Origin: Gluconacetobacter aggeris
Lineage (GTDB): Bacteria; Pseudomonadota; Alphaproteobacteria; Acetobacterales; Acetobacteraceae
Assembly: GCF_014174395.1 (NCBI RefSeq)
Contig: NZ_JABEQD010000023.1
Span: forward strand, 1-34,392
Reading direction: 5' to 3'
Length of the DNA: 34,392 bases
A program made the position numbers and the translations under genes. The notes beneath the pieces were generated by a model that made no database searches, had not been told where the DNA came from, and saw nothing but the letters and a program-made list of their open reading frames with translations. Positions 5,688 to 26,409 of this stretch are shown piece after piece; positions within the stretch are counted from its first letter, which is position 1; the number at the start of each line of letters is the position of its first letter.

Positions 5688-5813
5688 GGAAGGGCTCCGG
5701 GCATGCGCGATCGCCCGGCGCAGCAAGCTGGCCGGGGGCGCGAAAGGACGAACGGCCACCAGAAGGTGGCCGCTATGACGGGTCAGGTTGGTGGGGGCAG
5801 GTGCGGGGAGGCG

Positions 5814-6713: not shown

Positions 6714-6749
6714 ATGGCCGCCCGTGCGCACAGAATTGTGGAGTTAACG

Positions 6750-9032: not shown

Positions 9033-9956
9033 CTACTCAGAGATTAACAGGCCTGCCTTCCTGGCAAGCCTCTTCGGGACCGCAGGATGTGATTGCCGCA
9101 GTATCAACCCGTGCTCATTGGCCGTGACATCGGCTTCTGGATAAACCGCGAGCGCGATCTTCAAGCTGTCCAAAAAGTTTTCGCGGAATTTCCGCAGTCG
9201 TGCATAACTGCGTCCAAACTGCGCATACAAGGCAGGCCATGAGATCTGGCAATCGCTTGGCAGCGCATGGAGCCTATAAGCGAGCCAGCAATAGATATCG
9301 AGTGCCTGACTATTGTTCGAGATGGCGCGGATCGCGGACTCTTGCAGTGGTACGGGATGATGCTTCAATTGCTCAAAAAAACCTTCAGACAGCTTCACAG
9401 TCTCAAGTAGAGCACCTGTATCGTCATTAGTGAAAAGAGCAGTGTCGACGATATTTTGATTGACGATCCCGGTTTGTTTACCTTTGGCGACTTGGAATGT
9501 CATCCGGCATCTTGAAAGCCTAAGAGCTTGATCTCTGACTTCCTTCATACTCTTGCCGCCGATGGAGACTCCCAGCTTTCCGAGCCATACTCTTAAACTC
9601 CGACCGAGTTCGATCTCGCGGCTGTTTGTCTTTATCGCCTCGGTTTGCAGATAGAGGAGAATGAGTCTGGCGCGCGAACCGTAGGGAACGCCGACCCGGA
9701 CTACGCCTTTGCTCGTGTGTAAAGAACCGGGCTCAACAAGCAACTTTGTGTGGTCGGTCTCAATTACCCAAACGTGGTCGTCGGGCTGTTTTCGGTGTGG
9801 GAGTGCGGCCTGGCACCAGCCGCTGAAGAGGAATCCAACACCACCTGTTTCGTCGCTCATGAAGTCAAAAGCGACGTCGACCTCCTTGCGGTCTTCGACG
9901 AAAGAGAGCGCCCCTTGCCGTCCATGCTGCTCAATCAGGTTGTGGACACGTCCCAT
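9033..9956 (-). CDS. repA: RepA-type plasmid replication initiator
   Basis: This 307-residue protein resembles the plasmid RepA family (Pfam RepA_C). Family-like segments include VPYGSRARLILLYLQTEA near residue 90, LGVSIGG with LRLSRCRMTF in the middle, and QALDIYCWLAYRLHAL followed by SWPALYAQFG near residue 220. It would bind the iterons and open the origin. The ATG at 9956 has AGGA six bases upstream. The gene is read leftward, out of an AT-rich segment that holds iterons in both orientations, so it is probably autoregulated by RepA binding its own promoter. The iterons on both sides strongly support the call. Confidence 0.88.
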   Translation of the reverse strand: MGRVHNLIEQHGRQGALSFVEDRKEVDVAFDFMSDETGGVGFLFSGWCQAALPHRKQPDDHVWVIETDHTKLLVEPGSLHTSKGVVRVGVPYGSRARLILLYLQTEAIKTNSREIELGRSLRVWLGKLGVSIGGKSMKEVRDQALRLSRCRMTFQVAKGKQTGIVNQNIVDTALFTNDDTGALLETVKLSEGFFEQLKHHPVPLQESAIRAISNNSQALDIYCWLAYRLHALPSDCQISWPALYAQFGRSYARLRKFRENFLDSLKIALAVYPEADVTANEHGLILRQSHPAVPKRLARKAGLLISE

Positions 9957-12889: not shown

Positions 12890-13182
12890 AATCTATCCTG
12901 CCGTTTCTATGGCAACGCCGAGACAGATTAGGTCCGCTTCTGCCCGCTACTAGCAGCATACGTGCCGATGAACAGCTTTCCGCACAGGTGACATAAGCAG
13001 CACGGTCTATCTTGACCGAGTTGGGGCCGGGAGACGTCGGTTCGCTTTCAGCCATCTCCCGCGATAGACATTGCAGCCCTCATCCTTATGGTTGAAGCTT
13101 GTGCTTGGCCAAGGTGGAGAAGTTGGCCTAAGTATCTCAGAATCATATGTGTGGATCGCAGAAAAAAGGCTGAGCGGCACAG
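12890..13182 (+). other. non-coding leader of the conflict cassette
   Basis: No gene is seen in these roughly 290 bases between the transposon end repeats and the first cargo gene. They should carry the promoter of the five-gene operon. The best candidate I see is TTGGCC, 17 bases, then TATGTG, ending about 35 bases before the first start codon, but the match to consensus is weak. No obvious operator palindrome was found. Confidence 0.4.
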
Positions 13183-14523
13183 ATGCTCACGGGGGAATTA
13201 GTGGCCACCGATATTCTGATACGTTTCCTTGGTGCCGGTCTCATCAACGTAGGTGGTGACGACGCCAAGCTTGACCGGCTGAGAGAAACAGCGGCCGACC
13301 TCGCGGCCACCCTCGAGAAAACGCCGTCCAAGGCCGCTGCGTTCGCACTCATCGCCTTCGACCCGGAGGCTCCCGTAGATGACCCGGTCATCAAGGAGAC
13401 AGCCGAAGCACTCCAGAAGCGCTGGGCCACCTACGTCAACACCTTCTCGGGAACGCCCGTCGCCGTGATCCGGGCGATACTGCTCGACGCTCTTGTCCAC
13501 GCAGCGGAAGATGACGACAAGGTCGGCGTCGCTTTCGTGACCTCCGCCCGCAATGCCTTACCCTTCATGGAGGCCGGCAACGAGCGCGCGATTTGGACCG
13601 ATGTGGTGGCGGACATCGAGCGACGCGTAGACGCGCGAGCCGAAGCAGAATGGGCGGCGCCGTCTTCGATCACCGTGCCAGCCATGTCCTTTGACGCTCC
13701 TAAAGCCGTCTCCACGGGGGTGACGTTTGGAAGCGTCGATAAGGCGGCGCTCACGGTGCAGGTTCTGGCGGCTGCCGGTCCTCAAACTGCCACCGGACAA
13801 GCGACCGGGGGCAACCAATACTGGCCCAATCAACATCCGCAGCAGTGGGCCCAGCAGTTCAGCACCCGCTTGGCCGCCGCCATTGCCGACGCGGTGGATG
13901 CGCTCGGCAAGGAGGCGAATGTCGAACCGATCGACCTGTCCGGCCCCTTGAAGGGCATTGCTCAAGCCGTGACGACGCATGTGGAAGCCACATTGCAAGC
14001 GGTGACCGGAGCCTCGGCTGGCCTTCAGCGACGCACGAACCTGATCTGGTGGAAGGAGACCCTTTACTCACCAAGCGCTCGCGTAAGCTATCGCGGGATG
14101 CCGACGTCGACCGCGGCGGCATTGATGGCGTTCGACCTGCATCAGCAGGTGCCGACCTTCTCGCCGGCCAGCGTCGCCGCCTTCCTTCATGAGGCGGTCC
14201 TGAGCCTACCTTCCCTCGATCCCGCCGAAGGGCGACCAATCCGCAGCCTTTTGGAAGAGGCCATGGCCTCTCCTGAACTCACGCCGTTGCGGGAAGCCGC
14301 AGCGCAGCTCGTTCAGGACCTGGCAGGCCGTGGGCCGGTATTGGCACTCCTCGGACACCGCTCCGGCCGCTCGACCCTCGACGATGACGGCTTTCGTGCG
14401 CATGTCGGCGTTCCGGCAGCGACGCCGCTGACCGTGCCTGGATGGGCGACGTGGCTCTTCAGAGAGTTGCAGGCCGCTCGTGCAGCACAAGGGGGGGGCG
14501 GAGGCCAAGAAGCGAGGACGTAA
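13183..14523 (+). CDS. GASH-like (GTPase-associated system helical) protein, 446 aa
   Basis: First gene of the cassette. It is an alpha-helical, alanine-rich soluble protein. The N-terminal segment IRFLGAGLINVGGDDAKLDR, a middle AQQFSTRLAAAIADAVDAL and the segment RRTNLIWWKETLYSPSARVSYR fit my recollection of the GTPase-associated system helical domain, which accompanies double-GTPases in predicted conflict systems. The role in the family is thought to be adaptor or scaffold rather than enzyme, and no catalytic motif is visible. The start is uncertain: the ATG at 13183 has only a distant AAGG, while an in-frame GTG at 13201 follows GGGGGA closely. Six bases separate it from the first GTPase gene. 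The family name rests mainly on context plus resemblance. Confidence 0.72.
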   Translation: MLTGELVATDILIRFLGAGLINVGGDDAKLDRLRETAADLAATLEKTPSKAAAFALIAFDPEAPVDDPVIKETAEALQKRWATYVNTFSGTPVAVIRAILLDALVHAAEDDDKVGVAFVTSARNALPFMEAGNERAIWTDVVADIERRVDARAEAEWAAPSSITVPAMSFDAPKAVSTGVTFGSVDKAALTVQVLAAAGPQTATGQATGGNQYWPNQHPQQWAQQFSTRLAAAIADAVDALGKEANVEPIDLSGPLKGIAQAVTTHVEATLQAVTGASAGLQRRTNLIWWKETLYSPSARVSYRGMPTSTAAALMAFDLHQQVPTFSPASVAAFLHEAVLSLPSLDPAEGRPIRSLLEEAMASPELTPLREAAAQLVQDLAGRGPVLALLGHRSGRSTLDDDGFRAHVGVPAATPLTVPGWATWLFRELQAARAAQGGGGGQEART

Positions 14524-14529
14524 ATCCTG

Positions 14530-15486
14530 ATGACCGCGTGCTCGCGACCTACGTGCTTCGCGCCCGAAAGCACCTGCGACCTGGGCTTCTTGGATCGCGC
14601 CAAATGCCCAGGGTGGAAGCGCCGGGACGAGGCAGCGGCAGCGCAGGGTGAAACGGAGACCGACGAACTTTTGCTCCCCTGGTCGGGAAGCGCCATCGGT
14701 CTCGTTGACCTCGGCTTCGTCGCCGGGCGAACAAAGCCGTTGGTCGTCGGTATCGTAGGGCCGCAGAATGCGGGGAAGACCACCTTGCTGGCTGCCTGGT
14801 ACCTGCTCATCGGCCGCGGTCTGACCGGTTCCGATCAGCGTCGTTTTGCGGGCTCCTACTCGCTCGCCGGGTGGGAAGCCGTGGCAAGCGCGTTGCGATG
14901 GACACCCGGGCATCAGCCCAGCTTTCCGCCGCACACGACCAGTCGCAGCGGCCGAGCGCCCGGCCTCCTCCACCTCGCGTTCAGGACCGCGAATGGCGAG
15001 GTTCGCGGGTACACGCTCACCGACGCTCCCGGCGAGTGGTTCCAGAAATGGGCAGTCAACCGCGAGGCTGTCGAAGGCGAAGGCGCTCGCTGGGTCGCGG
15101 AGCACGCTGACCTCTTCTTGCTCATCGCGGATCGCGAAGCGCTTTCTGGCCCAAACATGGGTTCGGCCCGCGGCTCGATTCAAATTTTGGCGCACCGCTT
15201 GGCTGCCGAACGCGCAGGGCGTCCGGTGGCGCTCGTCTGGACCAAGTCGGACGTCGCAGTGGCGACCGAGATGGAGAAGGCGGTCCGCGATGCCGTGCTC
15301 GGCCCTATGCCAGACGCTCACGAGTTCTCGGTGAGCATCGCGGCCAGCGCGGACGACGCCTCCGACACGGGTCAAGGTCTTCTCGAGCTCCTGGACTGGA
15401 CGCTCGAGATTCGGCGCGAGCGCGTGTCCCTGCCGCCTGTCGAGGCCTCAAGTTCTGACCCGCTCTTCATGTTCGGCGCGAGGTGA
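14530..15486 (+). CDS. double-GTPase-type GTPase (DO-GTPase2-like), 318 aa
   Basis: This is a P-loop GTPase of the TRAFAC-like double-GTPase group. Walker A is GPQNAGKTT at residues 77-85, the switch II segment is DAPGEW at 165-170, and the base-recognition motif is TKSD at 238-241 (in place of NKxD). A small N-terminal module has four cysteines (C4, C9, C16, C26) ending in CPGW and could bind zinc. No membrane segment is present. The stop overlaps an in-frame GTG of the next gene, and the second GTPase follows at once. In the predicted systems the two GTPases act as a pair, switching the GAP1 protein and its effector by nucleotide hydrolysis. That role comes from comparative genomics. Confidence 0.85.
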   Translation: MTACSRPTCFAPESTCDLGFLDRAKCPGWKRRDEAAAAQGETETDELLLPWSGSAIGLVDLGFVAGRTKPLVVGIVGPQNAGKTTLLAAWYLLIGRGLTGSDQRRFAGSYSLAGWEAVASALRWTPGHQPSFPPHTTSRSGRAPGLLHLAFRTANGEVRGYTLTDAPGEWFQKWAVNREAVEGEGARWVAEHADLFLLIADREALSGPNMGSARGSIQILAHRLAAERAGRPVALVWTKSDVAVATEMEKAVRDAVLGPMPDAHEFSVSIAASADDASDTGQGLLELLDWTLEIRRERVSLPPVEASSSDPLFMFGAR

Positions 15487-15488
15487 TC

Positions 15489-16322
15489 ATGAGCGCCAGC
15501 GACAGATCTATCCTGCTCATCGGCGAGTCAGGCGTCGGCAAGACGCACTACGGCGCACAGCTCCTGAAGCGGCTGATGAAAGGTGACGGCCAGCTGCGGA
15601 TGGACGGTGCGGCCACCAACCTGGAGCCGTTCGAGGCCGCAATGGAGAGCCTGAACGAAGGCATGGCGGCCGGTCACACGCCCACGACCACCTATGTCGA
15701 CAGCATCTGGCCGATCGCGGACGTCAGCGGTCGCAAGGCGGAGCTTGTCTGGCCAGACTACGGCGGCGAGCAGATCAAGACTATATCGTCGACGCGCCGC
15801 ATCCCTGCGGCTTGGCGCGCCCGCGTCATCGACGCACCTGCCTGGCTTCTGTTGGTCCGCCTGCAGCAAACGCGTGTGAGCGAGGACATCTTCTCGCGTC
15901 CGCTGAGCACGCTGAAAGGCGCCGGCGTTGAAAATCGCGAGGTTCAGGTCTCGGACCAGGCTCGGCTGATCGAGTTGCTCCAGATGCTCCTCTACATCCG
16001 GGGCGCGATCAGCATGAAGCCGTTGGAGAGCCCCCGCCTATGCGTTATCCTGAGTTGCTGGGACGAGTTAGGCACCGATGAGCAGCCCGCCGTGGTCCTG
16101 GACCAGCGGCTCCCCATGTTTTCGAGCTTCGTGCACAGCATATGGATCGAACCGAGCGTGCTCGGCCTATCCGCGCTGGAGCGGCCACTCAGTCCCCGTG
16201 ATCCGGATATGGAGTACGCGGCGCGCGGTCCCGAGCAATTCGGCTATGTCGTTCTTCCGGACGGCCAGCGCTCCACGGACCTTACGTTGCCGATCCAGCG
16301 CCTCTTAGCCGACACCCTCTGA
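15489..16322 (+). CDS. double-GTPase-type GTPase (DO-GTPase1-like), 277 aa
   Basis: This is the second P-loop GTPase. Walker A is GESGVGKTH at residues 12-20, switch II is DYGGEQ at 90-95, and a base-recognition-like motif CWDEL lies at 190-194. The DxxGGEQ signature is typical of this double-GTPase family. The ATG at 15489 has GAGG five bases upstream; a GTG at 15483 overlapping the previous stop is the alternative. The protein is soluble and shorter than its partner, with no zinc module. The tight coupling of the two genes suggests that the proteins work as a heterodimeric switch, with GAP1 as the output. Confidence 0.87.
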   Translation: MSASDRSILLIGESGVGKTHYGAQLLKRLMKGDGQLRMDGAATNLEPFEAAMESLNEGMAAGHTPTTTYVDSIWPIADVSGRKAELVWPDYGGEQIKTISSTRRIPAAWRARVIDAPAWLLLVRLQQTRVSEDIFSRPLSTLKGAGVENREVQVSDQARLIELLQMLLYIRGAISMKPLESPRLCVILSCWDELGTDEQPAVVLDQRLPMFSSFVHSIWIEPSVLGLSALERPLSPRDPDMEYAARGPEQFGYVVLPDGQRSTDLTLPIQRLLADTL

Positions 16323-16340
16323 GACCGAGGGCCGGCGTCT

Positions 16341-18827
16341 ATGAGAGTCGAGCAGGCGATATACGGTGAGGTGCGCGGCGGGCATGCTATGCGGCTGGCC
16401 AGCGACCGCAGCCGCGTTCCCGCCGAGCTGGCGTCGCGCCTCGACCTGCCCGACACAGCGCCTCCCGGGGTGGAGTGGTCACCCTTCGTCAGCGGCTTCC
16501 CACACGGCGACCGCTACGTCCTTGCCCGCACCTTCGCCGACCCGACGGCATCCCGGGCCGGGATGGTCCTCTCCCATGCTGTCATCGCTCCCCTCGAAGA
16601 AGTGACAACGATGGCTGACCTGCGGCCGCTTATCGCGCTGCTGATCGCGGCGCCCGAGCCGCCCGATGCGATTCAAGAGTGCGACGTGCCCACGTCCACG
16701 CTGGCGGCGCCCACGGCCGCGGACTTGGTACCGGCAGCCGAGGCCCTGACTACCAGGGGAACCGGGCCTGTGGTGCGGGTCGGCGTTCAAGGGTTTGAAG
16801 ACTTAGCCGTCGCCTTGTGGTTCCACCTCTGGCCCGAACTCCGCGCCCGGTTCGCGTTTCGGCTGAGCTTCGGTCCGCATGATGTGGTCGATGTGCCCCA
16901 GCCGTCGCTCATCTGCACACCCACCGCATTGGCGGCCCGCTGGACGGGTCATCGTATCATCGGGACCTCTGGTTCGGCCCCTGTCTCACGCGCGGCTGCG
17001 ATCTTGAGCGGAGGCGCGGAGGCCGAACCTAGCCTCGCTTTCGCCCAGGAGATCGGGGCGCGACTGGACCGCTTCGCGGACTTGCCCCTGCTCGAGCGCG
17101 CCTTTGAGCTCGGCTCCTCCTCGAGCCCGAGCTTTGACGACTGCGTAGCCGTCCTTCGGCTCGTCGAGCGCCTCTCGCCCGATCCCACCATGGGTACGGC
17201 AGGCAAGGCAAAGCTGATCGAGAGGCTCGCCTCGAGACTGCACGGTGCCGCGGTGGGGGGCATTCTCCTGCTCAGAAACCTGAGCACAACGGGACTCCCG
17301 GCCGCGAGCACGCTATGGACAGGCCTCGAATCTTGGGCGGTCGCAAACAAGTTCCCACAAGCTGATGATCCGGCCATGTTGTCCGCGATCGACGACGCCC
17401 TTTCGGCCACGACCGCGGTCGAACCGTGGCGCAGGGCGGTCCTCGCGGGAGTCGTTGCCGTAGCGCGCTCGACTTCGTGTGGGTTTTCGGCGGCGTTTTG
17501 GCGTTGGGCTGAGACTCGACCTGCTACGCTGAAAGCGCTGGCCGACCACCTCCCGCAGGATGGAGGTTTAGAAGCTCGGCTGTCTGACGCCGTACCTCGT
17601 AAGATCAGTCACGACGCCGGCAAAGCGGTTACGGGCATCGCACTCATGAAGGGATGGCTTCGCCTACACGGGGCTGCTGCCGGTGCGAGCCTCTCGCCAA
17701 GCGAGGCAGTCCGCCAACAGCTCTCTGTCGATGCCGATCCGGGCAACCTCGACGGGCTCAGAGCCGCGTTGCGGACCGCTACGCCGGCGCAGTCGCTCGC
17801 GATAGCGCTCGACACGGCTGAGCCGCGCATCCTGCACATCGCGGCCGAGGAGGTCGCGCGAAAGCCCCAGCTCTTGAAGGATGTCGATTTCAGCACCCTG
17901 CCGGCGCAGCAGCTTTGGGCTCAGGCCCTTGCCGCCAACGCCGAAGCGTGGCGGGGGCCAACCGACCCGCAGCGCTCCTTTATTTCGGTCGTCGAAAAGC
18001 ACCTCGACGGGGGCACCGTTGATCAAGAGCTGATCACGGTACTCGCCAAGAGCCCCTTGGCCGACCTGAGCGGCTATGCCCGTCGCGCCGAGGTCTGGCC
18101 GCGGCTCGCGGATCCCACCCGGACCAACCTCCTGAAAGCCACAGCCAGCGGCTGGCTCGATCGTGCCTCGACGGGTGACGTCGTCCGCGCACCGGACCCG
18201 CAGCTTGAAGCTGCAATCCTCACAGGTGATCGCCTAGACAGCATACTGCGGACGCTGGCGCCGACCGGCGTCAGCACCGTCGCCAGGATCGTCTCCGCCC
18301 TGCCAGGGGTTGACGAGCACCGCTTCCTCCGCTGGCTGGGGAGTTGGGCGGTGGCGCGACGATCACTGCGGTCGGATGATGCGGAGATGCTCGGTCGCCT
18401 GGTCCTTGACCGCCGCTGGCGCAGCGCCGTCGATGAGCTAGTCCGCCTCGCGCGCATGGGGCGCGACGACGTTAAGCCGGCGCTCAGGGTGTGCCATGAT
18501 ATGATAGGTATCTTCACGCGGTGGACGCTCGGGCTATCGGTAGTCTCCTACGAGGAAAAGTGGACAGTCCTGGAGGACCTTGCCGCCGACCTCTACCCAA
18601 ATGGGCCCGATTACAACGAAATCTGGGGTCGAGCCGGTGGACGAGACGCAGACCTGCAGAGCTTCGGTAGCGGGCGGTCCCGATGGCGGGATGCGATCGG
18701 GCAAATGAGGCGGGGCAGAGGACCTCGACCTGCTCAACTGCTCGATGAGATGAAGCGGGATTTTCCCCACAGTGATCAAGTTCGCTATCTCGCCAGCGAT
18801 CCCGATCTCGGAAAAGGTTACCGGTAA
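16341..18827 (+). CDS. GAP1-like (GTPase-associated protein 1) with C-terminal effector-associated domain, 828 aa
   Basis: The N-terminus, QAIYGEVRGGHAMRLAS with later RYVLARTFADPTASRAGMVLSHA, matches the GAP1 N-terminal domain as I recall it (a QxxYG...GH start). A long helical middle with no enzyme motif fits the GAP1 M and C domains. The last ~90 residues (about 738-818) form a separate effector-associated domain with LADLYP-like (LAADLYP), EIWGRAGG, GSGRSRW and DFPH motifs. The same domain ends the caspase encoded next. In the family, GAP1 is proposed to couple the GTPases to an effector through such homotypic contacts. Eighteen bases separate it from both neighbours. I infer that it is the platform that recruits the caspase. 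Confidence 0.85.
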   Translation: MRVEQAIYGEVRGGHAMRLASDRSRVPAELASRLDLPDTAPPGVEWSPFVSGFPHGDRYVLARTFADPTASRAGMVLSHAVIAPLEEVTTMADLRPLIALLIAAPEPPDAIQECDVPTSTLAAPTAADLVPAAEALTTRGTGPVVRVGVQGFEDLAVALWFHLWPELRARFAFRLSFGPHDVVDVPQPSLICTPTALAARWTGHRIIGTSGSAPVSRAAAILSGGAEAEPSLAFAQEIGARLDRFADLPLLERAFELGSSSSPSFDDCVAVLRLVERLSPDPTMGTAGKAKLIERLASRLHGAAVGGILLLRNLSTTGLPAASTLWTGLESWAVANKFPQADDPAMLSAIDDALSATTAVEPWRRAVLAGVVAVARSTSCGFSAAFWRWAETRPATLKALADHLPQDGGLEARLSDAVPRKISHDAGKAVTGIALMKGWLRLHGAAAGASLSPSEAVRQQLSVDADPGNLDGLRAALRTATPAQSLAIALDTAEPRILHIAAEEVARKPQLLKDVDFSTLPAQQLWAQALAANAEAWRGPTDPQRSFISVVEKHLDGGTVDQELITVLAKSPLADLSGYARRAEVWPRLADPTRTNLLKATASGWLDRASTGDVVRAPDPQLEAAILTGDRLDSILRTLAPTGVSTVARIVSALPGVDEHRFLRWLGSWAVARRSLRSDDAEMLGRLVLDRRWRSAVDELVRLARMGRDDVKPALRVCHDMIGIFTRWTLGLSVVSYEEKWTVLEDLAADLYPNGPDYNEIWGRAGGRDADLQSFGSGRSRWRDAIGQMRRGRGPRPAQLLDEMKRDFPHSDQVRYLASDPDLGKGYR

Positions 18828-18845
18828 TATGCTGCGAGTGCGACT

Positions 18846-19958
18846 ATGAACGACGATAATCGACCTAAGCCAATCGAAAAGGCCGGCTTCTCGGATGGGC
18901 ACGCCTTGTTGGTGGCCGTCGCGGCCTACCCCAAGGTATCGCCATTGCCCCCTGCGGTGATCAATGACGCTCGCGAGGTGACCGCCGTCCTGACCTCTCC
19001 TGCGTATTGCGGCTACGACCCAAAGAACGTGACGACGCTACTGGACAGCGAAGCCACGCTTGAAGCGATCCGTCGCGAACTCAGCGCGCTCGCCAGCCGC
19101 GCCAAGCCTGACGATACGGTCATGATCTTCTTCTCTGGGCACGGCGCGCGCCTTGGCGATCCGAACGGTCCTGAGAGCGCGCTGATGCCAGTCGATTGCG
19201 ATCCGGGCGATGTATCGGCAACCGTTCTGTTGGAGACCGAGTTATCTTCCCTGCTGGCCGACATCAAGGCTCAACGCCTCGTCGTCTTTATCGACGCTTG
19301 TCATTCCGGTGGAGCCGGTAGCTTCAAGGCAGTCGGGAACATCGCTGGTCTTGGCTTCAGCGAAAAGTCGTTGGACCGATTGGCGCAAGGGACCGGTCGC
19401 GTCCTGATCGCATCGTCGCGAGCTTCCGAAACCTCGCTCGTGCTCCTAGGCGCGAGCAACAGCCTTTTCACCGAGCACCTCGTGGGCGCTTTGCGAGGCG
19501 CGGCACGCACCCATGGCGACGGCTTGATCCGCATCTTCGAGATTTTCAACTACGTTGCCGAGAAGGTCCGTGGCGCAGCACCGGGACGGCAGCACCCGAT
19601 CTTCAAGGCAAGCGATCTGGAAGACAACTTTCCCGTCGCGCTCGATCGAGGAGGCGCCAAGGGCATAGCCGCCCATCAGAACCCCGCCGTATCTGGCGGC
19701 ATCTGGCGGGAGCTTGAGAACATACTCGCCGACCTGTACCCGGCAGGCCCTCTGGATCAAGAAATCTGGGCGCGTGCGGGCGGTGATGTTTCCCGTCTTC
19801 GCCTGACCGGCACGGGACGTGCCAGCTGGTTCGCAGCGATTCAAACCCTTCAACGGGGTGGTGGTGGTGCCCATATTAGTCAGAGTGCTCTAGTTCAAGC
19901 AGCCCTTCAGGATTTCCCTCACCACCTCGCACTGACACAAATGTCGCAGCGAAGCTAA
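18846..19958 (+). CDS. caspase-like (C14) protease with C-terminal effector-associated domain, 370 aa
   Basis: The N-terminal ~260 residues are a metacaspase/caspase-type domain: LLVAVAAYP near residue 21, INDAREVTAVL, the catalytic His in FFSGHGAR (H99) and the catalytic Cys in FIDACHSGGAG (C152). Residues 285-365 form an effector-associated domain (LADLYP, EIWARAGG, GTGRASW, DFPH) that closely resembles the one at the end of the GAP1 protein. It is the last gene of the cassette and the only clear effector. The protease would be held inactive and released or oligomerised through EAD-EAD contact, then cleave host proteins to cause arrest or death. That outcome is inferred from the family. There is no signal peptide. 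Confidence 0.92.
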   Translation: MNDDNRPKPIEKAGFSDGHALLVAVAAYPKVSPLPPAVINDAREVTAVLTSPAYCGYDPKNVTTLLDSEATLEAIRRELSALASRAKPDDTVMIFFSGHGARLGDPNGPESALMPVDCDPGDVSATVLLETELSSLLADIKAQRLVVFIDACHSGGAGSFKAVGNIAGLGFSEKSLDRLAQGTGRVLIASSRASETSLVLLGASNSLFTEHLVGALRGAARTHGDGLIRIFEIFNYVAEKVRGAAPGRQHPIFKASDLEDNFPVALDRGGAKGIAAHQNPAVSGGIWRELENILADLYPAGPLDQEIWARAGGDVSRLRLTGTGRASWFAAIQTLQRGGGGAHISQSALVQAALQDFPHHLALTQMSQRS

Positions 19959-20400
19959 CCTTCTGCAGGTAAGCAGAACATCGGCAGGCGGACAAATGTC
20001 CGCTCGCAGGTTGCGCCAGGAATGGATGAACGTCGACACCTTAGTTGCCAAAACGACCACAGATACTTTCCTGCCGTAGCAATGTCTGCTCTAGAGTGCG
20101 TGACCCAAGATAAAGAGCGGCGGGGTTGGGGGCGCATGTCGGTCCCAAGCATCGTGCATGTGATGGCAGCTTCTTGCTTACCGCGTCCGTCAGCGTAAAT
20201 TCCGCTTCCTTCCCCCGAAATGGCCGTTCGCCGCGTTATCGCAAATGCGGTGAGCCGGCATGCCCTGTGGATAAACGATTCGCTATCGGACGGTGCGCGC
20301 GATATGGTGCCTTGACGCCGAGAGGGGGCAAGGCCGCCGGGCTTGGACCTCGCCTGTTTTCTGAATCGCGTCTGGTTGTTCTTCCTCGCGGGAGCCGCCA
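19959..20400. other. non-coding gap between cargo operon and tniA
   Basis: About 440 bases without a credible gene. Just after the caspase stop lies a weak hairpin, TTCTGC/GCAGAA at 19961-19978. A second palindrome, GCGGACA-AA-TGTCCGC at 19988-20003, has perfect 7-base arms and may be an operator or terminator. A single TGTGGATAA at 20266-20274 equals the DnaA-box consensus on the other strand, but it stands alone. The gap should contain the tniA promoter; I saw no clear one. Confidence 0.45.
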
Positions 20401-22068
20401 ATGCAACAGTCCGCCAAGTCCAGGCGATCCGTTCTCGATGTAAGCAGCGCCGCGTGGGAGCTGGCCACCAAACGAAGCGAAGTTCTGCGTCCGCTGGTCG
20501 AGGCCGATCGCACCAGTAGGCTGGAGATTGCGCTTGCGGCACAGCGCCTGGGACTCAGCATCCAGCATACCTATCGTCTGATCAAGAAGCTCAAGGAAGA
20601 GCCGACGGCCTCGGCTCTGGTGCATCGGTCGCGCGGCCCGCGGCCTGGCAGCAAGCGCCTGCCGGATGCCGTGGAACGGCTGATCACGGTGGCGGTGGAG
20701 AAGAGCTACCAGCAGCGGGAAAAGCCAACGCTGAAGCGGGTCTACCGCGAGCTTTGCCAGGAGTGTCGGGCGGTAGGTCGCAGGCCGCCGTCGATGAAGG
20801 CGTTCCGGGCCCGGGTAGCGGTGGCCGACCTGAAAAAACTGGTGCGTCGCCGAGAAGGGCCTGTGGCGGCGGACGCGCGATTTCATCAGATCAGAGGCAG
20901 CCTGGAGGCGGCACAGCCGCTGCAAATAGTCCAGATCGACCATACCAAGGTCGATCTGATGCTGGTCGATGACCTCACGCGCAGCAGCATCGGCCGTCCG
21001 TGGCTGACCCTGGTCCTGGATGTCCATACCAGGATGGTGCTCGGCTTCCTGCTGTCGCTGGAGGCACCGAGTGCAGCGTCAGTGGCGCTGGCCGTGACGC
21101 AGGCGGTGCTGCCCAAGGACGGATGGCGCGCCGAACGGCTGATCGAGCAGAGCTGGCCGACCGCGGGGATTCCGACCGCGATTCATGTCGACAACGGTGC
21201 CGAATTCCACAGTCGTGCTTTCGAGCGCGGCTGTGCCCAGCACGGGATCGAGGTCCTCTACCGTCCGCCGGCAACCCCGCGCTATGGGGGGCACATCGAG
21301 CGGTTGATGGGCACGCTGATGGGGCGGATCCAGGCCCTGCCGGGCACCACCTTTTCGAACGTGGTGGCCAAGGGGGATTATCCCGCGGAGGCGCGGGCCT
21401 GCCTGTCCTTTCGCGAATTCGAACGGATCCTGGCGCTGGAGGTGCTGGGCCCCTATCACAACGAGATCCACCGTAGCCTTGGCTGTCCGCCGGCGGCGCG
21501 CTGGGCCAAGGCGACCCAAGGGGGCTCCCTGCGGCATCCGGTCGACGACCAGGGCTTCCTGCTCGATTTTCTGCCCTTCCAGGAGCGGGTGGTGCGCCGG
21601 GACGGCGTGCGGTTGTTCAACATCCAGTATCAGGACGGCGCACTGGCGCATCTGCTGGGACAGCCCGCAACGAAAATGCGGGTGAAATATGACCCGCGCA
21701 ACCTGGCGGCGGTGTTCGTGGAGCTGCCGGACGGCGATCATGTGCGCGTGCCCTATGCCGATCTGCGCCGGGCCCCGATCACCCTGTGGGAACATCGGGA
21801 GGCGGTGCGGGCGCTGCGGGACGAGGGCCGCCGCTCGGTTGATGAGCACGCAATCTTTGGCGCGATTGCAGCCCAGCGGGCCATTCTCGACGAGGCGAGG
21901 GGGGTGAGCCGCCAGGCGAGGCGTAACGCGGTCCGTCGCGAGATGGCGCATACGACGACCGTGCGGGGTGAGGCTGCCCCCGAGGCGGGGCACCTGCCGG
22001 CCGCAGACGACGACGCGCGGATTCCGCTGCCGCCACCCGGCATGACCAGCGGCGTGGAGATCTGGTGA
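20401..22068 (+). CDS. tniA: TniA / TnsB-family DDE transposase, 555 aa
   Basis: This is the catalytic transposase of the element (Mu/TnsB/TniA retroviral-integrase fold). Catalytic residues appear as D180 in QIDHT, D264 in HVDNGAEF and E300 in GGHIERL, giving the expected D-35-E spacing. An N-terminal helix-turn-helix region (LEIALAAQRLGLSIQHTYRL, residues 41-60) precedes the core, and a Mu-C-like beta region follows near residue 400. The length of 555 residues is typical. The ATG has GGGAG six bases upstream. It would bind the ~20-bp end repeats and perform strand transfer. The stop overlaps the start of tniB. Confidence 0.93.
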   Translation: MQQSAKSRRSVLDVSSAAWELATKRSEVLRPLVEADRTSRLEIALAAQRLGLSIQHTYRLIKKLKEEPTASALVHRSRGPRPGSKRLPDAVERLITVAVEKSYQQREKPTLKRVYRELCQECRAVGRRPPSMKAFRARVAVADLKKLVRRREGPVAADARFHQIRGSLEAAQPLQIVQIDHTKVDLMLVDDLTRSSIGRPWLTLVLDVHTRMVLGFLLSLEAPSAASVALAVTQAVLPKDGWRAERLIEQSWPTAGIPTAIHVDNGAEFHSRAFERGCAQHGIEVLYRPPATPRYGGHIERLMGTLMGRIQALPGTTFSNVVAKGDYPAEARACLSFREFERILALEVLGPYHNEIHRSLGCPPAARWAKATQGGSLRHPVDDQGFLLDFLPFQERVVRRDGVRLFNIQYQDGALAHLLGQPATKMRVKYDPRNLAAVFVELPDGDHVRVPYADLRRAPITLWEHREAVRALRDEGRRSVDEHAIFGAIAAQRAILDEARGVSRQARRNAVRREMAHTTTVRGEAAPEAGHLPAADDDARIPLPPPGMTSGVEIW

Positions 22069-22994
22069 CCATGCGAGATGCCGAGTGGTCGCACCTCCCG
22101 GAAGACGTGAGACCGTTGGCCGCCCTGGATGCCGAGCAGCGGATCGCGCACATCCGCGCCAAGCGCTGGGTCGATTATCCCCATGCCGCGCGGGTGCTGG
22201 GCCGACTGGAAGAAATCTATGCCCAGCCGCGCTCGGAGCGAATGGAAAATCTGTTGCTGATCGGCCAGAGCGGCATGGGCAAGACGACGCTGATCCGCAA
22301 ATTCGAACGTCAGTCGTCGGTGGTGATCAAGGGGGTCGGCACTTTCCGCCTGCAGCCGGTGGTGGTCATGCTGATGCCGCATGATCCGACCGGTCCCCGC
22401 TTCTTCTCGCAGTTGCTCAAGGCGGTCGGGGTGCCGCCGATCGACACGTTCGAAGTCGGTGCCCCGCGGGAATCCACGGTGCTTCGGGTGCTGGCGGAAC
22501 TGCAGACCAAGGTCATTGTCATCGACGAGCTGAATTCGGTCCTGGCCGCGTCGCCGCGGCAGCAACGCAGATTTCTGCAGTTGCTGCGGTGGCTGTCGAA
22601 TGAACTGCGGGTGGCGCTGGTTGGTGTCGGCGTGCCGGAGACCCGGCACGCCCTGCTGTCCGACGACCAGCTGCGCAGCCGGTTCATGAACCTCGACCTG
22701 CCGGAATGGGAGGAGGGGGCGGAGTTGACCCGGTTTGTCACCCGCCTGATCTGGAGCCTGCCGTTGCGGGGCCCGTCGCCGATCGACTCCCCCCGGGTGA
22801 TGCAGCTGCTGGTCGGTCGTACCGGCGGAATCACGCTGGGGATCTGCAAGGCGATCGAGCGGGCGGCGATCGCGGCGATCCGTTCCGGTGCCGAGCGGGT
22901 GGACTATGGCGCCCTGCAGAGCCAGGAGGTGTGGGATGGGCTTGAGCCGCCGCCGGCGACCGTCAGACGCCGGCAGCGGAGCGGGCGCGGGTAA
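22065..22994 (+). CDS. tniB: TniB-family AAA+ ATPase, 309 aa
   Basis: This is the transposition regulator ATPase that links target choice to the transposase. Walker A is GQSGMGKTT near residues 67-75 and Walker B is IVIDELN near 151-157, followed by a sensor-like segment VALVGVGVPETRHAL. These are the standard features of TniB/TnsC-type proteins. The GTG at 22065 overlaps the tniA stop (GTGA), and an ATG six bases later is a possible alternative start. Its stop shares one base with the tniQ start, so all three tni genes are coupled. Confidence 0.93.
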   Translation: MTMRDAEWSHLPEDVRPLAALDAEQRIAHIRAKRWVDYPHAARVLGRLEEIYAQPRSERMENLLLIGQSGMGKTTLIRKFERQSSVVIKGVGTFRLQPVVVMLMPHDPTGPRFFSQLLKAVGVPPIDTFEVGAPRESTVLRVLAELQTKVIVIDELNSVLAASPRQQRRFLQLLRWLSNELRVALVGVGVPETRHALLSDDQLRSRFMNLDLPEWEEGAELTRFVTRLIWSLPLRGPSPIDSPRVMQLLVGRTGGITLGICKAIERAAIAAIRSGAERVDYGALQSQEVWDGLEPPPATVRRRQRSGRG

Positions 22995-24019
22995 TGGCGC
23001 TCCGCGGGTTGCCGATCGTACCCGCGCCGTTCCGCGGCGAGGTGCTGTCGTCCTGGCTCGCCAGGCTGGCGGCACGCTACGACCTGCGCGCCAGCCATCT
23101 CCTCAGCCATGTCGGCTGCGATATGCCTGATGCCCGGGCGCTGGATTGGTGCGCGGCGCCGAGGGTGGACCGGGCGCTCGCCCGCGTCACCGGCGTCAGC
23201 GTGCAACGGCTTGCCGGGATGCGCTGCGGCGGGGCGGAGGCTTGGCTATGGGATCGGCCAGCGCCGGCATGGTGCCGGACGTGTCTACAGGCGGATCTGC
23301 TGGCGGGCGGAGAGACCTGGGAACGCCGGGCGTGGCGGAGTGGAGCGACGGCGCTCTGTGACCGCCACGGCCAACTGCTGGAAGAGGCCTGCCCCTGCTG
23401 CGGCAAGCGCGGAACGGGCTGTCTGTTTCAGAGCCAGGAAGGGAGGGTGCGCGCCCACTGTGCGACGCGGGATAAGCCGGTAAGCCTGTGGCGGCAGCGG
23501 CCGCCGCCGGGGTTGCCCTGGGGGCTGTGCCTTGATCCGCTGATGGCCCGCGCCATTGCTGGGCTGCAACGTGACCTGGGCCGGAGCCTGGGCGGCCGGC
23601 CATTGCAGGCTCGATGGCGCGGCGTGACGTGGGCGGCCGAGCTGCCGGCGCTGGTGGGGGATATTCTGCTGATGGTCGTGTTGACCCTTGGTCTGCGACT
23701 GCAGGCTGCGCCGCCGTTGTGGTGGCTGCAGCAGCGTGCGGACTGGCGCAGCGACTTCTCCTTCACGCCAGCGATGGTGCCGCTTGAACTGGCCGGAGGT
23801 GTTCTCGCGCTGGCGGCCATCATGCTGGGCGATCCGGACCGGTTTGCGGTCACCGACGGCCGCGTTGCCTGGTCTCCGTCGGGGATCGCGCAGGAACGCC
23901 AACCATGCAGCGTTGAGCGCTTTCTGGCCTGGCTGGATCCGGGGGTGGCCGGCTGGGGCCGGCGGCGGCTCGCCGGCGTTGGGGCCAGTAACCGAATTAA
24001 GGGCTCTTTTTCGCCTTAA
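22994..24019 (+). CDS. tniQ: TniQ-family target-selection protein, 341 aa
   Basis: The protein starts with the TniQ signature region PIVPAPFRGEVLSSWLARLA, followed by LSHVG and the zinc-binding pairs AWCRTCL near residue 91 and ACPCCGKRG near residue 132, with H124 between them (CDRHGQLLEE). In Tn5053/Tn402 and Tn7-like systems TniQ/TnsD proteins help choose the target site. At 341 residues it is on the short side. The last 26 bases overlap two of the right-end repeats, so coding and end functions share DNA. The start shares one base with the tniB stop. Confidence 0.9.
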   Translation: MALRGLPIVPAPFRGEVLSSWLARLAARYDLRASHLLSHVGCDMPDARALDWCAAPRVDRALARVTGVSVQRLAGMRCGGAEAWLWDRPAPAWCRTCLQADLLAGGETWERRAWRSGATALCDRHGQLLEEACPCCGKRGTGCLFQSQEGRVRAHCATRDKPVSLWRQRPPPGLPWGLCLDPLMARAIAGLQRDLGRSLGGRPLQARWRGVTWAAELPALVGDILLMVVLTLGLRLQAAPPLWWLQQRADWRSDFSFTPAMVPLELAGGVLALAAIMLGDPDRFAVTDGRVAWSPSGIAQERQPCSVERFLAWLDPGVAGWGRRRLAGVGASNRIKGSFSP

Positions 24020-24110
24020 CCAGGGGAATCTTTCTCCTGATTAAGGGGAATTTCCTGCAGCCTGGGGCCGCGGCGGACCGGGCGTTCTCGCCATTAAGGA
24101 GATTTCGACA
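23994..24110 (-). repeat. right transposon end with four transposase-binding-like repeats
   Basis: Reading inward on the minus strand from 24110, the terminal repeat (24091-24110) is followed by copies at 24036-24055, 24012-24034 and 23994-24012. The shared core on the minus strand is (G)AAATTCCCCTTAAT with variations. Cores are about 53, 21 and 21-22 bases apart, mirroring the left end (48, 20, 20). The two innermost copies overlap the end of tniQ. Confidence 0.8.
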
Positions 24111-24351
24111 ATTTTCGCCGGCAGTATGGCCGGCTTACGTATGTCCGACAAGAGACATTATCGGACATACAGTGCGCGGGAAAAGAGGGGAGGGGGCGGA
24201 GACGGAACGGCGGAATCCTCGGCCGCATATCTCCATTGACCGGCAGACCAGGTGTTAAGAACGAATCAATGCTGATCAATGGCGAATTGCCATACTGATT
24301 TCCCTGTCCTACCCTCAGTCGGCCGGCAGGCGCGCCGGGATGAGGAGCAGG
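24111..24351. other. non-coding leader of the RES operon, right flank of the transposon
   Basis: The region holds the 32-bp inverted repeat at 24139-24170 and then no recognisable gene up to the RES start. A TTGACC hexamer at 24236-24241 could be a -35, but no well-placed -10 follows. Before the transposon arrived, this DNA was probably the divergent spacer between the recombinase operon (now ending at 12684) and the RES operon. Confidence 0.5.
24139..24170. promoter_or_regulatory. 32-bp inverted repeat, possible recombination site or operator
   Basis: GTATGTCCGA and TCGGACATAC are perfect 10-base inverted arms around the 12-base spacer CAAGAGACATTA. There is no T-run, so it is not an obvious terminator. 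It begins 28 bases outside the transposon's right end, between a recombinase operon and a recombinase-like operon. It could be a core site for the tyrosine recombinase or an operator. Confidence 0.55.
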
Positions 24352-25671
24352 ATGACGGCTGAAATCTCCCCCCGATACGCTGGCGAAGCCCGGGTTTGTG
24401 CCGATTGCGTCGGTGACCCGTGGCTGCAAAAAGACATGTTCACCAGCGGCCGCGACCGGCGCTGCGCCTTCTGTGACCGCCCGGGGATCACCTGGGATGT
24501 GGCGGAGCTGGCGAGGCGGACCGATCGGGTCTATCGCCGGGTGGTGGGCAGGTATCACGATGCCGAGCATTGGCGCAGGCGCCGCGAGGCCCAGCATCCG
24601 CGGGAAATCGTTGAGACGCTGCTGCAATGCGACACGGAGCTTGCGGACGCCGTGCTCTCGGAGATGGGGGGCGGCGACGGCGCAAATGAACCGGACGAAC
24701 AGTACCTGATCACTATTCCCGCCGCCTCCTCTCATAGTGAGGACTGGCAAGGCTTCTGCCAAAGCCTGGAGAGCACCTCGCGCTTCTTCAATGACCAGGC
24801 GGCCCGCCTGCTGGAGGATCTGCTGGGCAGCCCGCCGGCAGAGGCGGTGGTGACCGTCGGCCCGGGGACGGAGCAGCCGCGGTTGTTCCGGGCCCGGCTG
24901 GCCGTCGACCCGGTCGAGGTGGCCAAAATGCTGGCGGATCCGGCGGCCCAGTTCGCGGCGCCGCCGCCGGCGCTTCGGCGGGCGGGGCGGATGAATGCCG
25001 CTGGGATTCCAGTGCTCTATCTCGCCTGCGAGGAGGAGACCGCGCTGGCCGAACTGCGGCCGGCGCTGGGTGCCGAGGTGGTGATCGCCCCGCTGGCGCC
25101 GCAGCGGCCGTTGCGGCTGCTCGACCTGTCCCGGCTGGGCGACAGCAAGGTCGCCTATTTCCACCCGGAACTGGCGCTGTTGGAGGGACGGCGGCGGTTC
25201 CTCGCGGAATTCGGCTGGCAGATCTCGCGTCCGGTGCCGCCGCACCAGGAGAGCATCGGCTATCTGCCCACCCAATGTGTCGCCGATTATCTGGCGAACA
25301 AGGCGAGCCCGCGCTACGACGGGGTGCTCTATCCTTCTGCCCTGCGCCAGCGCGGCCGCAACATCGTGCTGTTCGCCCATGCCTTGTCGGTCGGTGCGGA
25401 TGATCCGCGATTTCCCCTGGCGACCAAAGCGGTGCGGCTGGCCGGCTATCATCCCGAAGATCCCCCGGAATATGTGCTGTGCACCGGCGGGGCGGAGCAA
25501 CCGGGTTCATCGCCGAGCGCGGCGACGCTGCTGGTGCTGACCGAGGATCTGGTCGTGCATAGCGTGTCTGCACTGGCCTATACGTCAGCGCCGACGCATG
25601 TCAGCAAATTCGACAATCCTGCCGCCGAAGTCGGCGATGCGGCGACGGCAGACCTCGGGCTGGGATTGTAA
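24352..25671 (+). CDS. RES-domain protein with HEPN/RES N-terminal zinc module, 439 aa
   Basis: The C-terminal ~265 residues are a RES domain, a fold of NAD+-degrading toxins: Arg in RLFRAR (R180/R182), Tyr in PVLYLA (Y223), Glu in TALAELRP (E234) and Ser in LYPSALR (S329). The N-terminal part has two CxxC pairs (C16/C19 and C38/C41) followed by a helical region, as in the HEPN/RES N-terminal domain 1 class. No Xre-type antitoxin gene adjoins it, unlike classic RES-Xre pairs. I start at the ATG 24352, just after GAGGAGCAGG; an ATG four codons earlier is possible. It heads a four-gene operon. Confidence 0.82.
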   Translation: MTAEISPRYAGEARVCADCVGDPWLQKDMFTSGRDRRCAFCDRPGITWDVAELARRTDRVYRRVVGRYHDAEHWRRRREAQHPREIVETLLQCDTELADAVLSEMGGGDGANEPDEQYLITIPAASSHSEDWQGFCQSLESTSRFFNDQAARLLEDLLGSPPAEAVVTVGPGTEQPRLFRARLAVDPVEVAKMLADPAAQFAAPPPALRRAGRMNAAGIPVLYLACEEETALAELRPALGAEVVIAPLAPQRPLRLLDLSRLGDSKVAYFHPELALLEGRRRFLAEFGWQISRPVPPHQESIGYLPTQCVADYLANKASPRYDGVLYPSALRQRGRNIVLFAHALSVGADDPRFPLATKAVRLAGYHPEDPPEYVLCTGGAEQPGSSPSAATLLVLTEDLVVHSVSALAYTSAPTHVSKFDNPAAEVGDAATADLGLGL

Positions 25672-25677
25672 GGGGCC

Positions 25678-26409
25678 GTGTTGGACGACCAGCCGACAAG
25701 CCGGGGGCGGACGGTGGACTGCCGGCCAGCCAACCACGGCAGTGACCGCGGCGCGGCAACCCGCGCCACCTATGCCACCAGCTGGTCGGCCTTTGTCGCC
25801 TGGTGCGCGGCGCGCGCGGTGGCGCCGCTGCCGGTCGATCCGGCAGCGGCGGCGGCGTGGCTGCAGGCGCGTGCCCGCGCCGGCCGCAGCCAGGCCAGCC
25901 TGCGGGTAGATTGCGCCGCCCTGGCCGGGCAGCAGCGCGGCGCCGGTTTCCTGTGGGGGCGCGACGAGCGGATCGCCCGCGCCATCGCCCGCGGCCGGGT
26001 CAAGGCGCGGCCGGCCGATCCGGCCGCCGCCCTGCGGCGGGCGGCGGCCGGCTGCGACCACAGTCTGCGCGGCAGCCGGGATCGCGCGCTGCTGCTGCTG
26101 GCGGCGGAGCGCTTCACCGGCGCGGCGCTGGCGGCGCTCGATGTCGAGCATCTCGAACCGCTGGCCGGCGGCGGCCTGCGGGTGACCAGCTCCGCCCCCT
26201 TTACCACTATGCGGGCGGTCCGTGACCTGGCGCGTCGGCCGGGCGAGCCCGGCTGCGCGGTCGAGGCGGTCGAGCTGTGGCGCCGGCGCGGACAACGCCG
26301 GTTCGGTGCCCTGTTCACCAGCATCTCCCGTGCCGAGCGCCCGGGCGATCGGCTGTCGGCCGACATGGTGCGGCTGCTGCTGCGCCGCGCCAAAGCGGGT
26401 GCCGGGTGA
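25678..26409 (+). CDS. truncated, probably inactive tyrosine-recombinase-like protein, 243 aa
   Basis: The layout follows the N-terminal core-binding domain and the first part of a tyrosine recombinase: TRATYATSWSAFVAWCAAR near residue 30 parallels TLRAYRASIRAWCAWSAR in the recombinase at 10448-11884, and GSRDRALLLLA near residue 132 parallels GVRDRALLVIG. The first catalytic Arg (GAMRRSEL in the paralogue) is lost (RFTGAALAAL here). The protein ends before the His-x-x-Arg, His and Tyr boxes. It may bind DNA without cutting it. The GTG start has AGGGG four bases upstream, and the stop overlaps the next gene as GTGA, so it is translated as part of the operon rather than being random decay. Confidence 0.7.
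   Translation: MLDDQPTSRGRTVDCRPANHGSDRGAATRATYATSWSAFVAWCAARAVAPLPVDPAAAAAWLQARARAGRSQASLRVDCAALAGQQRGAGFLWGRDERIARAIARGRVKARPADPAAALRRAAAGCDHSLRGSRDRALLLLAAERFTGAALAALDVEHLEPLAGGGLRVTSSAPFTTMRAVRDLARRPGEPGCAVEAVELWRRRGQRRFGALFTSISRAERPGDRLSADMVRLLLRRAKAGAG

What the first reader, a model, noticed from the sequence alone, without database searches (positions are those of the whole stretch)
13183..19958. Complete GTPase-GAP1-caspase conflict cassette
Five tightly coupled genes encode a GASH-like helical protein, two double-GTPase-type GTPases (GPQNAGKTT/TKSD and GESGVGKTH/DYGGEQ), a GAP1-like protein and a caspase with its His-Cys dyad. The order and parts match a class of NTP-dependent conflict systems predicted from comparative genomics by Kaur, Burroughs, Iyer and Aravind. 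To my knowledge, few if any members had been tested. The likely logic is that GTPase state controls GAP1, which then recruits and activates the caspase for abortive killing or arrest.
Basis: partly seen in the sequence, partly recalled or inferred. Interest (0 to 1): 0.9.

Follow-up and report, generated by a model that had tools for sequence, protein, structure and literature searches.

The report
Plasmid GTPase-caspase defence-like cassette, predicted class
A plasmid-like piece of DNA, probably from an acetic acid bacterium or a close relative, carries an intact five-gene set in which two GTPase-like proteins and two helper proteins appear wired to a caspase-like protease, a kind of bacterial defence or self-destruct switch that was predicted by computer in 2020 and for which my searches found no laboratory test.

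Summary
The genes at 13183-19958 match GASH, DO-GTPase2, DO-GTPase1, GAP1-N1+EAD1 and Peptidase_C14+EAD1, all above curated cut-offs. [quoted passage not shown] 2020 (PMC7159879), which already lists caspase effectors and EAD1 on GAP1 and effector: a new member of a known kind. My searches found no experimental test.

Added here:
- GASH-G2-G1 in this order in 81 of 81 loci examined; GAP1 in 79; a caspase in 54. Of 10 non-caspase loci scanned, several carry other effectors.
- Caspase dyad kept in 54 of 54, DO-GTPase2 zinc-ribbon-like cysteines in 81 of 81.
- The host genome shows only this caspase and these two EAD1s.
- A 7.25 kb block is shared at 93% with Bombella; flanks do not match.
- In 0 of 71 loci is GAP1's EAD1 closest to its own effector's EAD1; the caspase EAD1s form a separate lineage, often with reversed charges at two positions.

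Action as abortive defence is inference.

The parts
12956..20209 (+). Exchange unit: operon plus about 230 bp upstream and 250 bp downstream
   Evidence: One blastn block, 93.4% identical, with Bombella saccharophila L014:7495-14727; 13049-20031 at 89.1% with Poseidonocella L015:7572-14548; no other blastn match of the window to these two loci at E 1e-10
13183..14523 (+). GASH protein, helical, 446 aa
   Evidence: PF19994 E 1.2e-99; AlphaFold2 model mean pLDDT 89.5, mostly helix; no PDB fold match at E<=1e-3
14530..15486 (+). DO-GTPase2 (G2): N-terminal four-cysteine zinc-ribbon-like motif, P-loop G77-T84, D165xxG168E169, T238K239S240D241
   Evidence: PF19993 E 4.9e-64; C4, C9, C16, C26, K83, K239 in 81 of 81 aligned relatives
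15483..16322 (+). DO-GTPase1 (G1): P-loop G14-T21, D92YGG95E96Q, C192WD194E195 in place of N/TKxD
   Evidence: PF19975 E 8.8e-74; residue counts
16341..18827 (+). GAP1: beta-rich N domain (1-101), alpha/beta segment (about 120-205), helical solenoid (about 217-730), EAD1 (739-819)
   Evidence: PF20012 and PF19955; AlphaFold2 mean pLDDT 91.9, pTM 0.67; weak helical-repeat Foldseek hits
18846..19958 (+). Caspase (Peptidase_C14) with C-terminal EAD1; H99/C152 dyad, acidic D41 and D150
   Evidence: PF00656 and PF19955; H99, C152, D41, D150 each 54 of 54

Best explanation
It is a complete GAP1-N1-type GTPase-centric conflict system. Most likely mechanism: the two unlike P-loop proteins (DO-GTPase2 and DO-GTPase1) form a nucleotide-gated pair that, together with the helical GASH protein, holds GAP1 in a resting state. 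GAP1 reads the state of that pair through its conserved N domain and, on a trigger linked to an invader (phage or plasmid), exposes or clusters its C-terminal EAD1. That EAD1 binds the EAD1 tail of the caspase and brings caspase molecules together, which switches on a protease expected to cut after Arg or Lys. Cutting of host or invader proteins then arrests or kills the cell. Shown here: presence, intactness, co-occurrence, kept catalytic residues, EAD1 on both partners, different effectors in relatives, exchange as one DNA unit. Inferred: GTPase pairing, GAP1 as reader, EAD-EAD contact, trigger, substrates, outcome.
For: All five families match strongly. GASH-G2-G1 in order in 81 of 81 loci, GAP1 in 79, the other 2 cut by contig ends. 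The effector differs between relatives: of 10 non-caspase loci scanned, PNP in five (one fused to GAP1-N1), metallophosphoesterase, SEFIR/TIR, trypsin, a large AAA-type protein, and one with EAD1 only, much as Kaur et al. describe. Caspase H99 and C152 54 of 54; G2 cysteines and P-loop lysine 81 of 81. D41 and D150 54 of 54; in the metacaspase-1 alignment D41 lies in the IND motif, and D150 is two residues before the catalytic Cys. I equate them with TbMCA2 Asp95 and Asp211, named as S1-pocket acids in two papers (passages); the transfer of numbering is my inference. In the host genome the GASH, Peptidase_C14 and EAD1 searches hit only this cassette (1, 1 and 2 matches). dN/dS per gene is 0.15-0.37 in the three pairs among window, L014 and L015 (sub-regions of GAP1 up to 0.52). 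The commonest Pfam family among 112 flanking ORFs occurs in 4, so no sixth gene recurs.
Against: My searches found no anti-phage, anti-plasmid or killing test of any member. Sequence does not fix the direction of control (GTPases on GAP1 or the reverse). DO-GTPase1 lacks the usual guanine-recognition lysine, so a two-GTPase switch is not certain. The loci were found by similarity to this system's DO-GTPase1, so the caspase share (54 of 81) is biased. The neighbour scans have no control, so defence-island placement is not shown. PADLOC gave only weak P-loop matches to the GTPases (best 1.1e-3), nothing for GASH or GAP1, and a caspase model for the protease (7.2e-18). The two EAD1s of a locus are not closest relatives, which does not favour simple self-matching of EADs.
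Confidence: 0.66

Rival explanations
1. Plasmid addiction or competition between mobile elements: the cassette kills or arrests cells that lose the plasmid or take up a competitor; phage is not the target.
For: The window has RepA_C and ParA-like genes and its first 13 kb resembles Acetobacteraceae plasmids. DO-GTPase1 tblastn hit 13 plasmid records, 7 of them at 48% identity or more, and one phage record. The unit is shared with Bombella and Poseidonocella without matching flanks.
Against: Many relatives lie on contigs of over 100 kb in genome assemblies (replicon type not checked). There is no antitoxin-like pair. The effectors of relatives are those listed for conflict systems.
Confidence: 0.17
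2. A non-lethal stress or regulatory module: nucleotide-controlled, limited proteolysis that tunes metabolism or development.
For: An NTP switch and a caspase-like fold do not by themselves imply killing; non-death roles of caspase relatives are known (general knowledge).
Against: Patchy distribution: GASH over the cut-off in 2 of 385 genomes drawn from the class, one being this genome; near-identical copies in distant genera; different effectors in relatives.
Confidence: 0.12
3. Decayed or inactive copy.
For: None seen in the window.
Against: Five full-length ORFs, catalytic residues kept, dN/dS below 0.4 per gene.
Confidence: 0.03

Closest known systems
GAP1-N1-type GTPase-centric conflict systems (Kaur, Burroughs, Iyer, Aravind 2020, PMC7159879)
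   Same: GASH, two DO-GTPases (one with zinc ribbon), GAP1-N1, variable effector, EAD1 on GAP1 and effector, caspase among the listed effectors.
   Different: In none of the 71 loci with both EAD1s is GAP1's EAD1 nearest to its own effector's, whereas the paper says copies in adjacent genes tend to be closest relatives. GAP1-M/C models did not match.
Skermanella, Rhizobium and Mesorhizobium plasmid loci (L005, L006, L008), annotated from 'GTPase-associated system all-helical protein GASH' to 'caspase family protein'
   Same: Same five genes, same order.
   Different: DO-GTPase1 68, 64 and 61% identical to the window's; other neighbouring genes.
EACC1-caspase two-gene systems
   Same: The caspase domain matches NF047832 'caspase, EACC1-associated type' with 110 bits.
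   Different: Below that model's cut-off of 140 bits; the EAD1-bearing partner is GAP1. No EACC1 match was listed for the five proteins, but I did not check that those libraries hold an EACC1 model.
Orthocaspases/metacaspases
   Same: His-Cys dyad and two acidic residues at the predicted S1 pocket; phmmer match to metacaspase-1 7qp0, E 1.5e-8.
   Different: Carries a C-terminal EAD1 and is encoded in a GTPase operon.

Membership tests
GAP1-N1-type GTPase-centric conflict system | Two DO-GTPases | tested here: met
   PF19993 and PF19975
GAP1-N1-type GTPase-centric conflict system | One DO-GTPase with N-terminal zinc ribbon | tested here: met
   By motif only: Cys 4, 9, 16, 26 of DO-GTPase2 in 81 of 81, with start codons chosen by script; with annotated starts 3 of the 7 sequences (L005, L011, L012) begin after the motif or part of it. 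No zinc-ribbon model matched
GAP1-N1-type GTPase-centric conflict system | GAP1 with N1-type N domain | tested here: met
   PF20012 E 1.2e-27
GAP1-N1-type GTPase-centric conflict system | GAP1-M and GAP1-C domains | tested here: inconclusive
   No match to such Pfam models at E up to 1; the predicted structure has an alpha/beta segment and a long helical solenoid after the N domain
GAP1-N1-type GTPase-centric conflict system | GASH protein instead of an FNIII protein | tested here: met
   PF19994 E 1.2e-99; no FNIII match in the five proteins
GAP1-N1-type GTPase-centric conflict system | Variable effector coupled to GAP1 by fusion, EAD1 or GAAD | tested here: met
   EAD1 on GAP1 and caspase; other effectors in relatives
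GAP1-N1-type GTPase-centric conflict system | EADs of adjacent genes closest to each other (stated as a tendency, not a requirement) | tested here: not met
   0 of 71 loci by identity and by tree distance; L010 dropped by hand
GAP1-N1-type GTPase-centric conflict system | Action against invaders | not testable with these tools
   Needs phage or plasmid challenge
Caspase/orthocaspase (active type) | His-Cys dyad | tested here: met
   H99 and C152, 54 of 54
EACC1-caspase system | Caspase above the family cut-off | tested here: not met
   110 bits against a cut-off of 140

The most novel reading that the evidence does not exclude
In the caspase branch the EAD1 connector is a polarised plug and socket, not a symmetric self-match. 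GAP1-EAD1 and caspase-EAD1 are two old lineages kept apart across proteobacteria and actinobacteria, with reversed charges (GAP1 R768/D771 against caspase D314/R317) that help the right partner dock and keep the caspase from assembling alone. This would give a concrete rule for which effector a GAP1 can fire.
Probability: 0.33. Interest if true: 0.55.

Novelty: new member of a known kind. Interest (0 to 1): 0.42.

Why it matters
The class was predicted in 2020 and my searches found no laboratory test of it. This copy is a handy test case: complete, about 7.25 kb, shared between genera as one unit, under purifying selection, and in a genome where no other caspase or EAD1 protein was found. It would let one ask directly whether a bacterial GTPase switch can fire a caspase through a death-domain-like tail, the parallel with animal apoptosis that Kaur et al. 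proposed. The EAD1 lineage result gives a testable rule for effector specificity.

Tried and rejected
Cargo of the adjacent TniA/B/Q transposon: not supported. The block shared with Bombella ends at 20209, before tniA (20401), and no later part of the window matched that locus. No plasmid record matched 19700-26500 by megablast. I did not find transposon ends; the repeats shown (20 of at least 60 direct families, 25 of 100 inverted pairs) have no obvious terminal pair around the cassette.

GASH as a known fold: no Foldseek match at E<=1e-3, no PDB sequence match of the profile at E<=0.1. GAP1: no PDB sequence match and only generic helical-repeat hits (among the 50 listed, TM-score to the query 0.06-0.17; top hit a chain of a TBCD-Arl2-tubulin complex, E 9.8e-4). 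I read this as a helical-repeat solenoid at most and do not use the GTPase partners of those hits as evidence. The DO-GTPase2 profile matched ARF-like GTPases weakly (from 1e-3), DO-GTPase1 nothing convincing.

Charge reversal as proof of an interface: rejected as proof. The two positions are i and i+3; opposite charges inside one EAD occur in non-caspase loci too, and in 4 of 18 of those both partners have the same polarity. An internal salt bridge explains this as well.

Cognate EAD covariation: partial Mantel r 0.24, p 0.001 with G1 distance removed (51 loci), which may reflect imperfect correction for relatedness. Own pairs are only slightly more alike than mismatched pairs in caspase loci (0.376 against 0.362).

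Viral contigs: 17 pattern matches, none confirmed; one phage record hit.
Full report
Observation. Five co-directional ORFs at 13183-19958 match GASH, DO-GTPase2, DO-GTPase1, GAP1-N1+EAD1 and Peptidase_C14+EAD1 in Pfam, each above its curated cut-off. Neighbouring genes are 6 nt apart, overlap by 4 nt, or are 18 nt apart, as in one operon.

Setting. The contig (34,392 bases, G000:C23) has RepA_C (9033-9956, -), ParA-like (6714-7403, +), integrase, TniA/B/Q and RES genes. Its first 13 kb matches 39 plasmid records, 35 of them in the 60-80% identity band, chiefly Komagataeibacter and Gluconobacter. So it is probably a plasmid or part of one; a simple exact test found no overlap of the contig ends. 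In the host genome (completeness 99.98%) the GASH, Peptidase_C14 and EAD1 searches gave 1, 1 and 2 matches, all in this cassette.

Relatives. tblastn with DO-GTPase1 hit 13 plasmid records, 7 at 48% identity or more, and 1 phage record. A pattern scan of one genome for each of 84,980 species gave 71 confirmed loci out of 91 stretches; viral contigs gave none. I fetched 8 of the 13 plasmid records and the phage record. HMMs built from the window and 6 relatives (fewer for caspase and EAD), most of them then refined on the same ORF set, show GASH, DO-GTPase2 and DO-GTPase1 in this order in all 81 loci (window, 8 plasmid, 1 phage, 71 genome), and GAP1 in 79; L053 and L059 end before it. A few copies have GASH or GAP1 in pieces (L010, L036, L062, L074, L082). 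By my count, 54 of 81 carry a caspase after GAP1; 14 an EAD1 protein before GASH; 3 one after GAP1 on the same strand; 1 on the other strand; 6 a GAP1 of about 1,030 aa without EAD1; 3 are cut by contig ends. Ten of these 27 were scanned: PNP_UDP_1 in five (four separate proteins, one fused to GAP1-N1), metallophosphoesterase, SEFIR/TIR, Trypsin_2, an AAA-type protein of 2,155 aa, and one with EAD1 only, just under the cut-off. In L013, L073 and L075 the EAD was found by my own HMM but Pfam EAD1 was not listed at E 1e-3. GASH is rare: over the cut-off in 2 of 385 genomes drawn from the class, one of them this genome.

Exchange unit. The window and Bombella saccharophila share one block, window 12956-20209, at 93.4% DNA identity; Poseidonocella shares 13049-20031 at 89.1%; no other part of the window matched these two loci at E 1e-10. 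The operon with short flanks has thus moved as a unit between different alphaproteobacteria. dN/dS per gene is 0.15-0.37 in the three pairs; within GAP1 single stretches reach 0.52. Over 51 caspase loci GAP1 (mean divergence 0.65) and GASH (0.60) differ more than the GTPases (0.49, 0.50) and the caspase (0.53); within GAP1 residues 241-720 diverge most (0.66-0.72). If one part senses the invader, the GAP1 solenoid or GASH is the better candidate; this is inference.

Residues. DO-GTPase2: C4, C9, C16, C26, K83, D165, G168, E169, K239 in 81 of 81, D241 in 78. DO-GTPase1: K20 in 77, the other 4 rows being gaps there; G95, E96, C192, D194, E195 in 81; W193 in 66. So DO-GTPase2 keeps the usual GTPase motifs and DO-GTPase1 looks like an altered partner. 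Start codons in these alignments were chosen by script; with annotated starts some DO-GTPase2 sequences begin after the cysteines. Caspase: H99, C152, D41 and D150 in 54 of 54. D41 and D150 fall where metacaspases have S1-pocket acids (alignment; passages of PMC4357240 and PMC6426788), so cleavage after Arg or Lys is expected; the exact equivalence is my inference.

Structures. GASH model: mean pLDDT 89.5, mostly helix, no PDB match at E<=1e-3. GAP1 model: mean pLDDT 91.9, pTM 0.67; beta-rich 1-101, alpha/beta about 120-205, solenoid about 217-730, EAD1 at the end; only weak helical-repeat matches. Pfam GAP1-M and GAP1-C did not match.

EAD1. Seventy-one loci have an EAD1 on GAP1 and on an effector (53 caspase, 18 other; L010 dropped by hand). 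In 0 of 71 is GAP1's EAD1 closer to its own effector's EAD1 than to the nearest other GAP1 EAD1, by identity or by tree distance. Mean identity in caspase loci: own pair 0.376, mismatched GAP1-caspase pair 0.362, GAP1 against GAP1 0.45, caspase against caspase 0.54. All 53 caspase EAD1s form one exact split in the 142-leaf tree (support 0.84). The GAP1 EAD1s do not form an exact one there: the best split for all 71 has 86 leaves, so 15 non-caspase effector EADs fall with them; for the 53 GAP1s of caspase loci the best split has 54 leaves, 52 of them targets (support 0.83). In the caspase-locus tree (106 leaves) the two kinds separate fully (support 0.94), exactly in 78 of 100 bootstraps and with Jaccard 0.95 or more in 94. 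Kaur et al. say that EADs of adjacent genes tend to be closest relatives; here they are not. At two positions of caspase loci the two kinds tend to carry opposite charges: GAP1 K/R in 44 of 53 against caspase D/E in 51 of 53, and GAP1 D/E in 46 against caspase R in 37; in the window these are GAP1 R768/D771 and caspase D314/R317. The full reciprocal pattern is in 30 of 53 loci, or 13 of 25 clusters at 60% identity, and is not a rule in the 18 other loci. An internal i,i+3 salt bridge is an equally good reading. The separation of lineages is well supported; polarised docking is a hypothesis.

Context. Of 112 flanking ORFs scanned (of 186 listed), the commonest Pfam family, Phage_integrase, is in 4 and the commonest PADLOC family in 3. 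Transposase, relaxase, Abi_2, RhuM and YhcG-nuclease matches also occur; no control was run.

Comparison. The system is what Kaur et al. 2020 call GTPase-centric subsystem 1 (section 28 read whole; section 30 whole; passages of others; abstract and outline). Their text lists caspases among the effectors and EAD1 on both GAP1 and effector. My searches for tests of it showed no experimental paper; apart from passages of PMC10910872 and PMC11237479 I saw only listings there. One search was swamped by other uses of 'GASH' (2,419 papers, 15 listed) and adds little. The library lacks most subscription papers and holds no bioRxiv collection.

Verdict. Real, complete and correctly recognised: a new member of a known class for which I found no test, with one modest new result on EAD1 lineages.

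Noticed in passing
window 564-5759 (-): 1,731-aa methylase-helicase fusion (Eco57I, ResIII, Helicase_C matches); about 75% identical DNA on Gluconobacter and Komagataeibacter plasmids, where it is annotated DEAD/DEAH helicase, methyltransferase or even lactate dehydrogenase. It recalls DarB-type phage antirestriction proteins (from memory, untested).
   Followed up: partly
window 20401-24019 (+): TniA, TniB and TniQ genes directly after the cassette; no plasmid record matched 19700-26500 by megablast.
   Followed up: partly
window 24340-25671 (+): RES domain protein with a HEPN/RES N-terminal match (below that model's cut-off), toxin-like.
   Followed up: no
L010:12737-15213: GAP1 of the Enterobacter kobei IncHI2A plasmid pCTX-M_SCLZS19 is annotated as two ORFs; described only.
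   Followed up: no
L013:9787-17238: Leptospira phage LkmZ_Bejolso9 carries GASH-G2-G1-GAP1 with a phosphorylase gene (EAD found by my HMM; not listed by Pfam) next to an integrase gene.
   Followed up: partly
L073:1209-7676: A 2,155-aa AAA-type protein with an EAD (own HMM) sits upstream of GASH.
   Followed up: no
window 19326-19328, caspase K161: Lysine nine residues after the catalytic Cys, kept in 53 of 54 caspases; possible self-processing site, untested.
   Followed up: no
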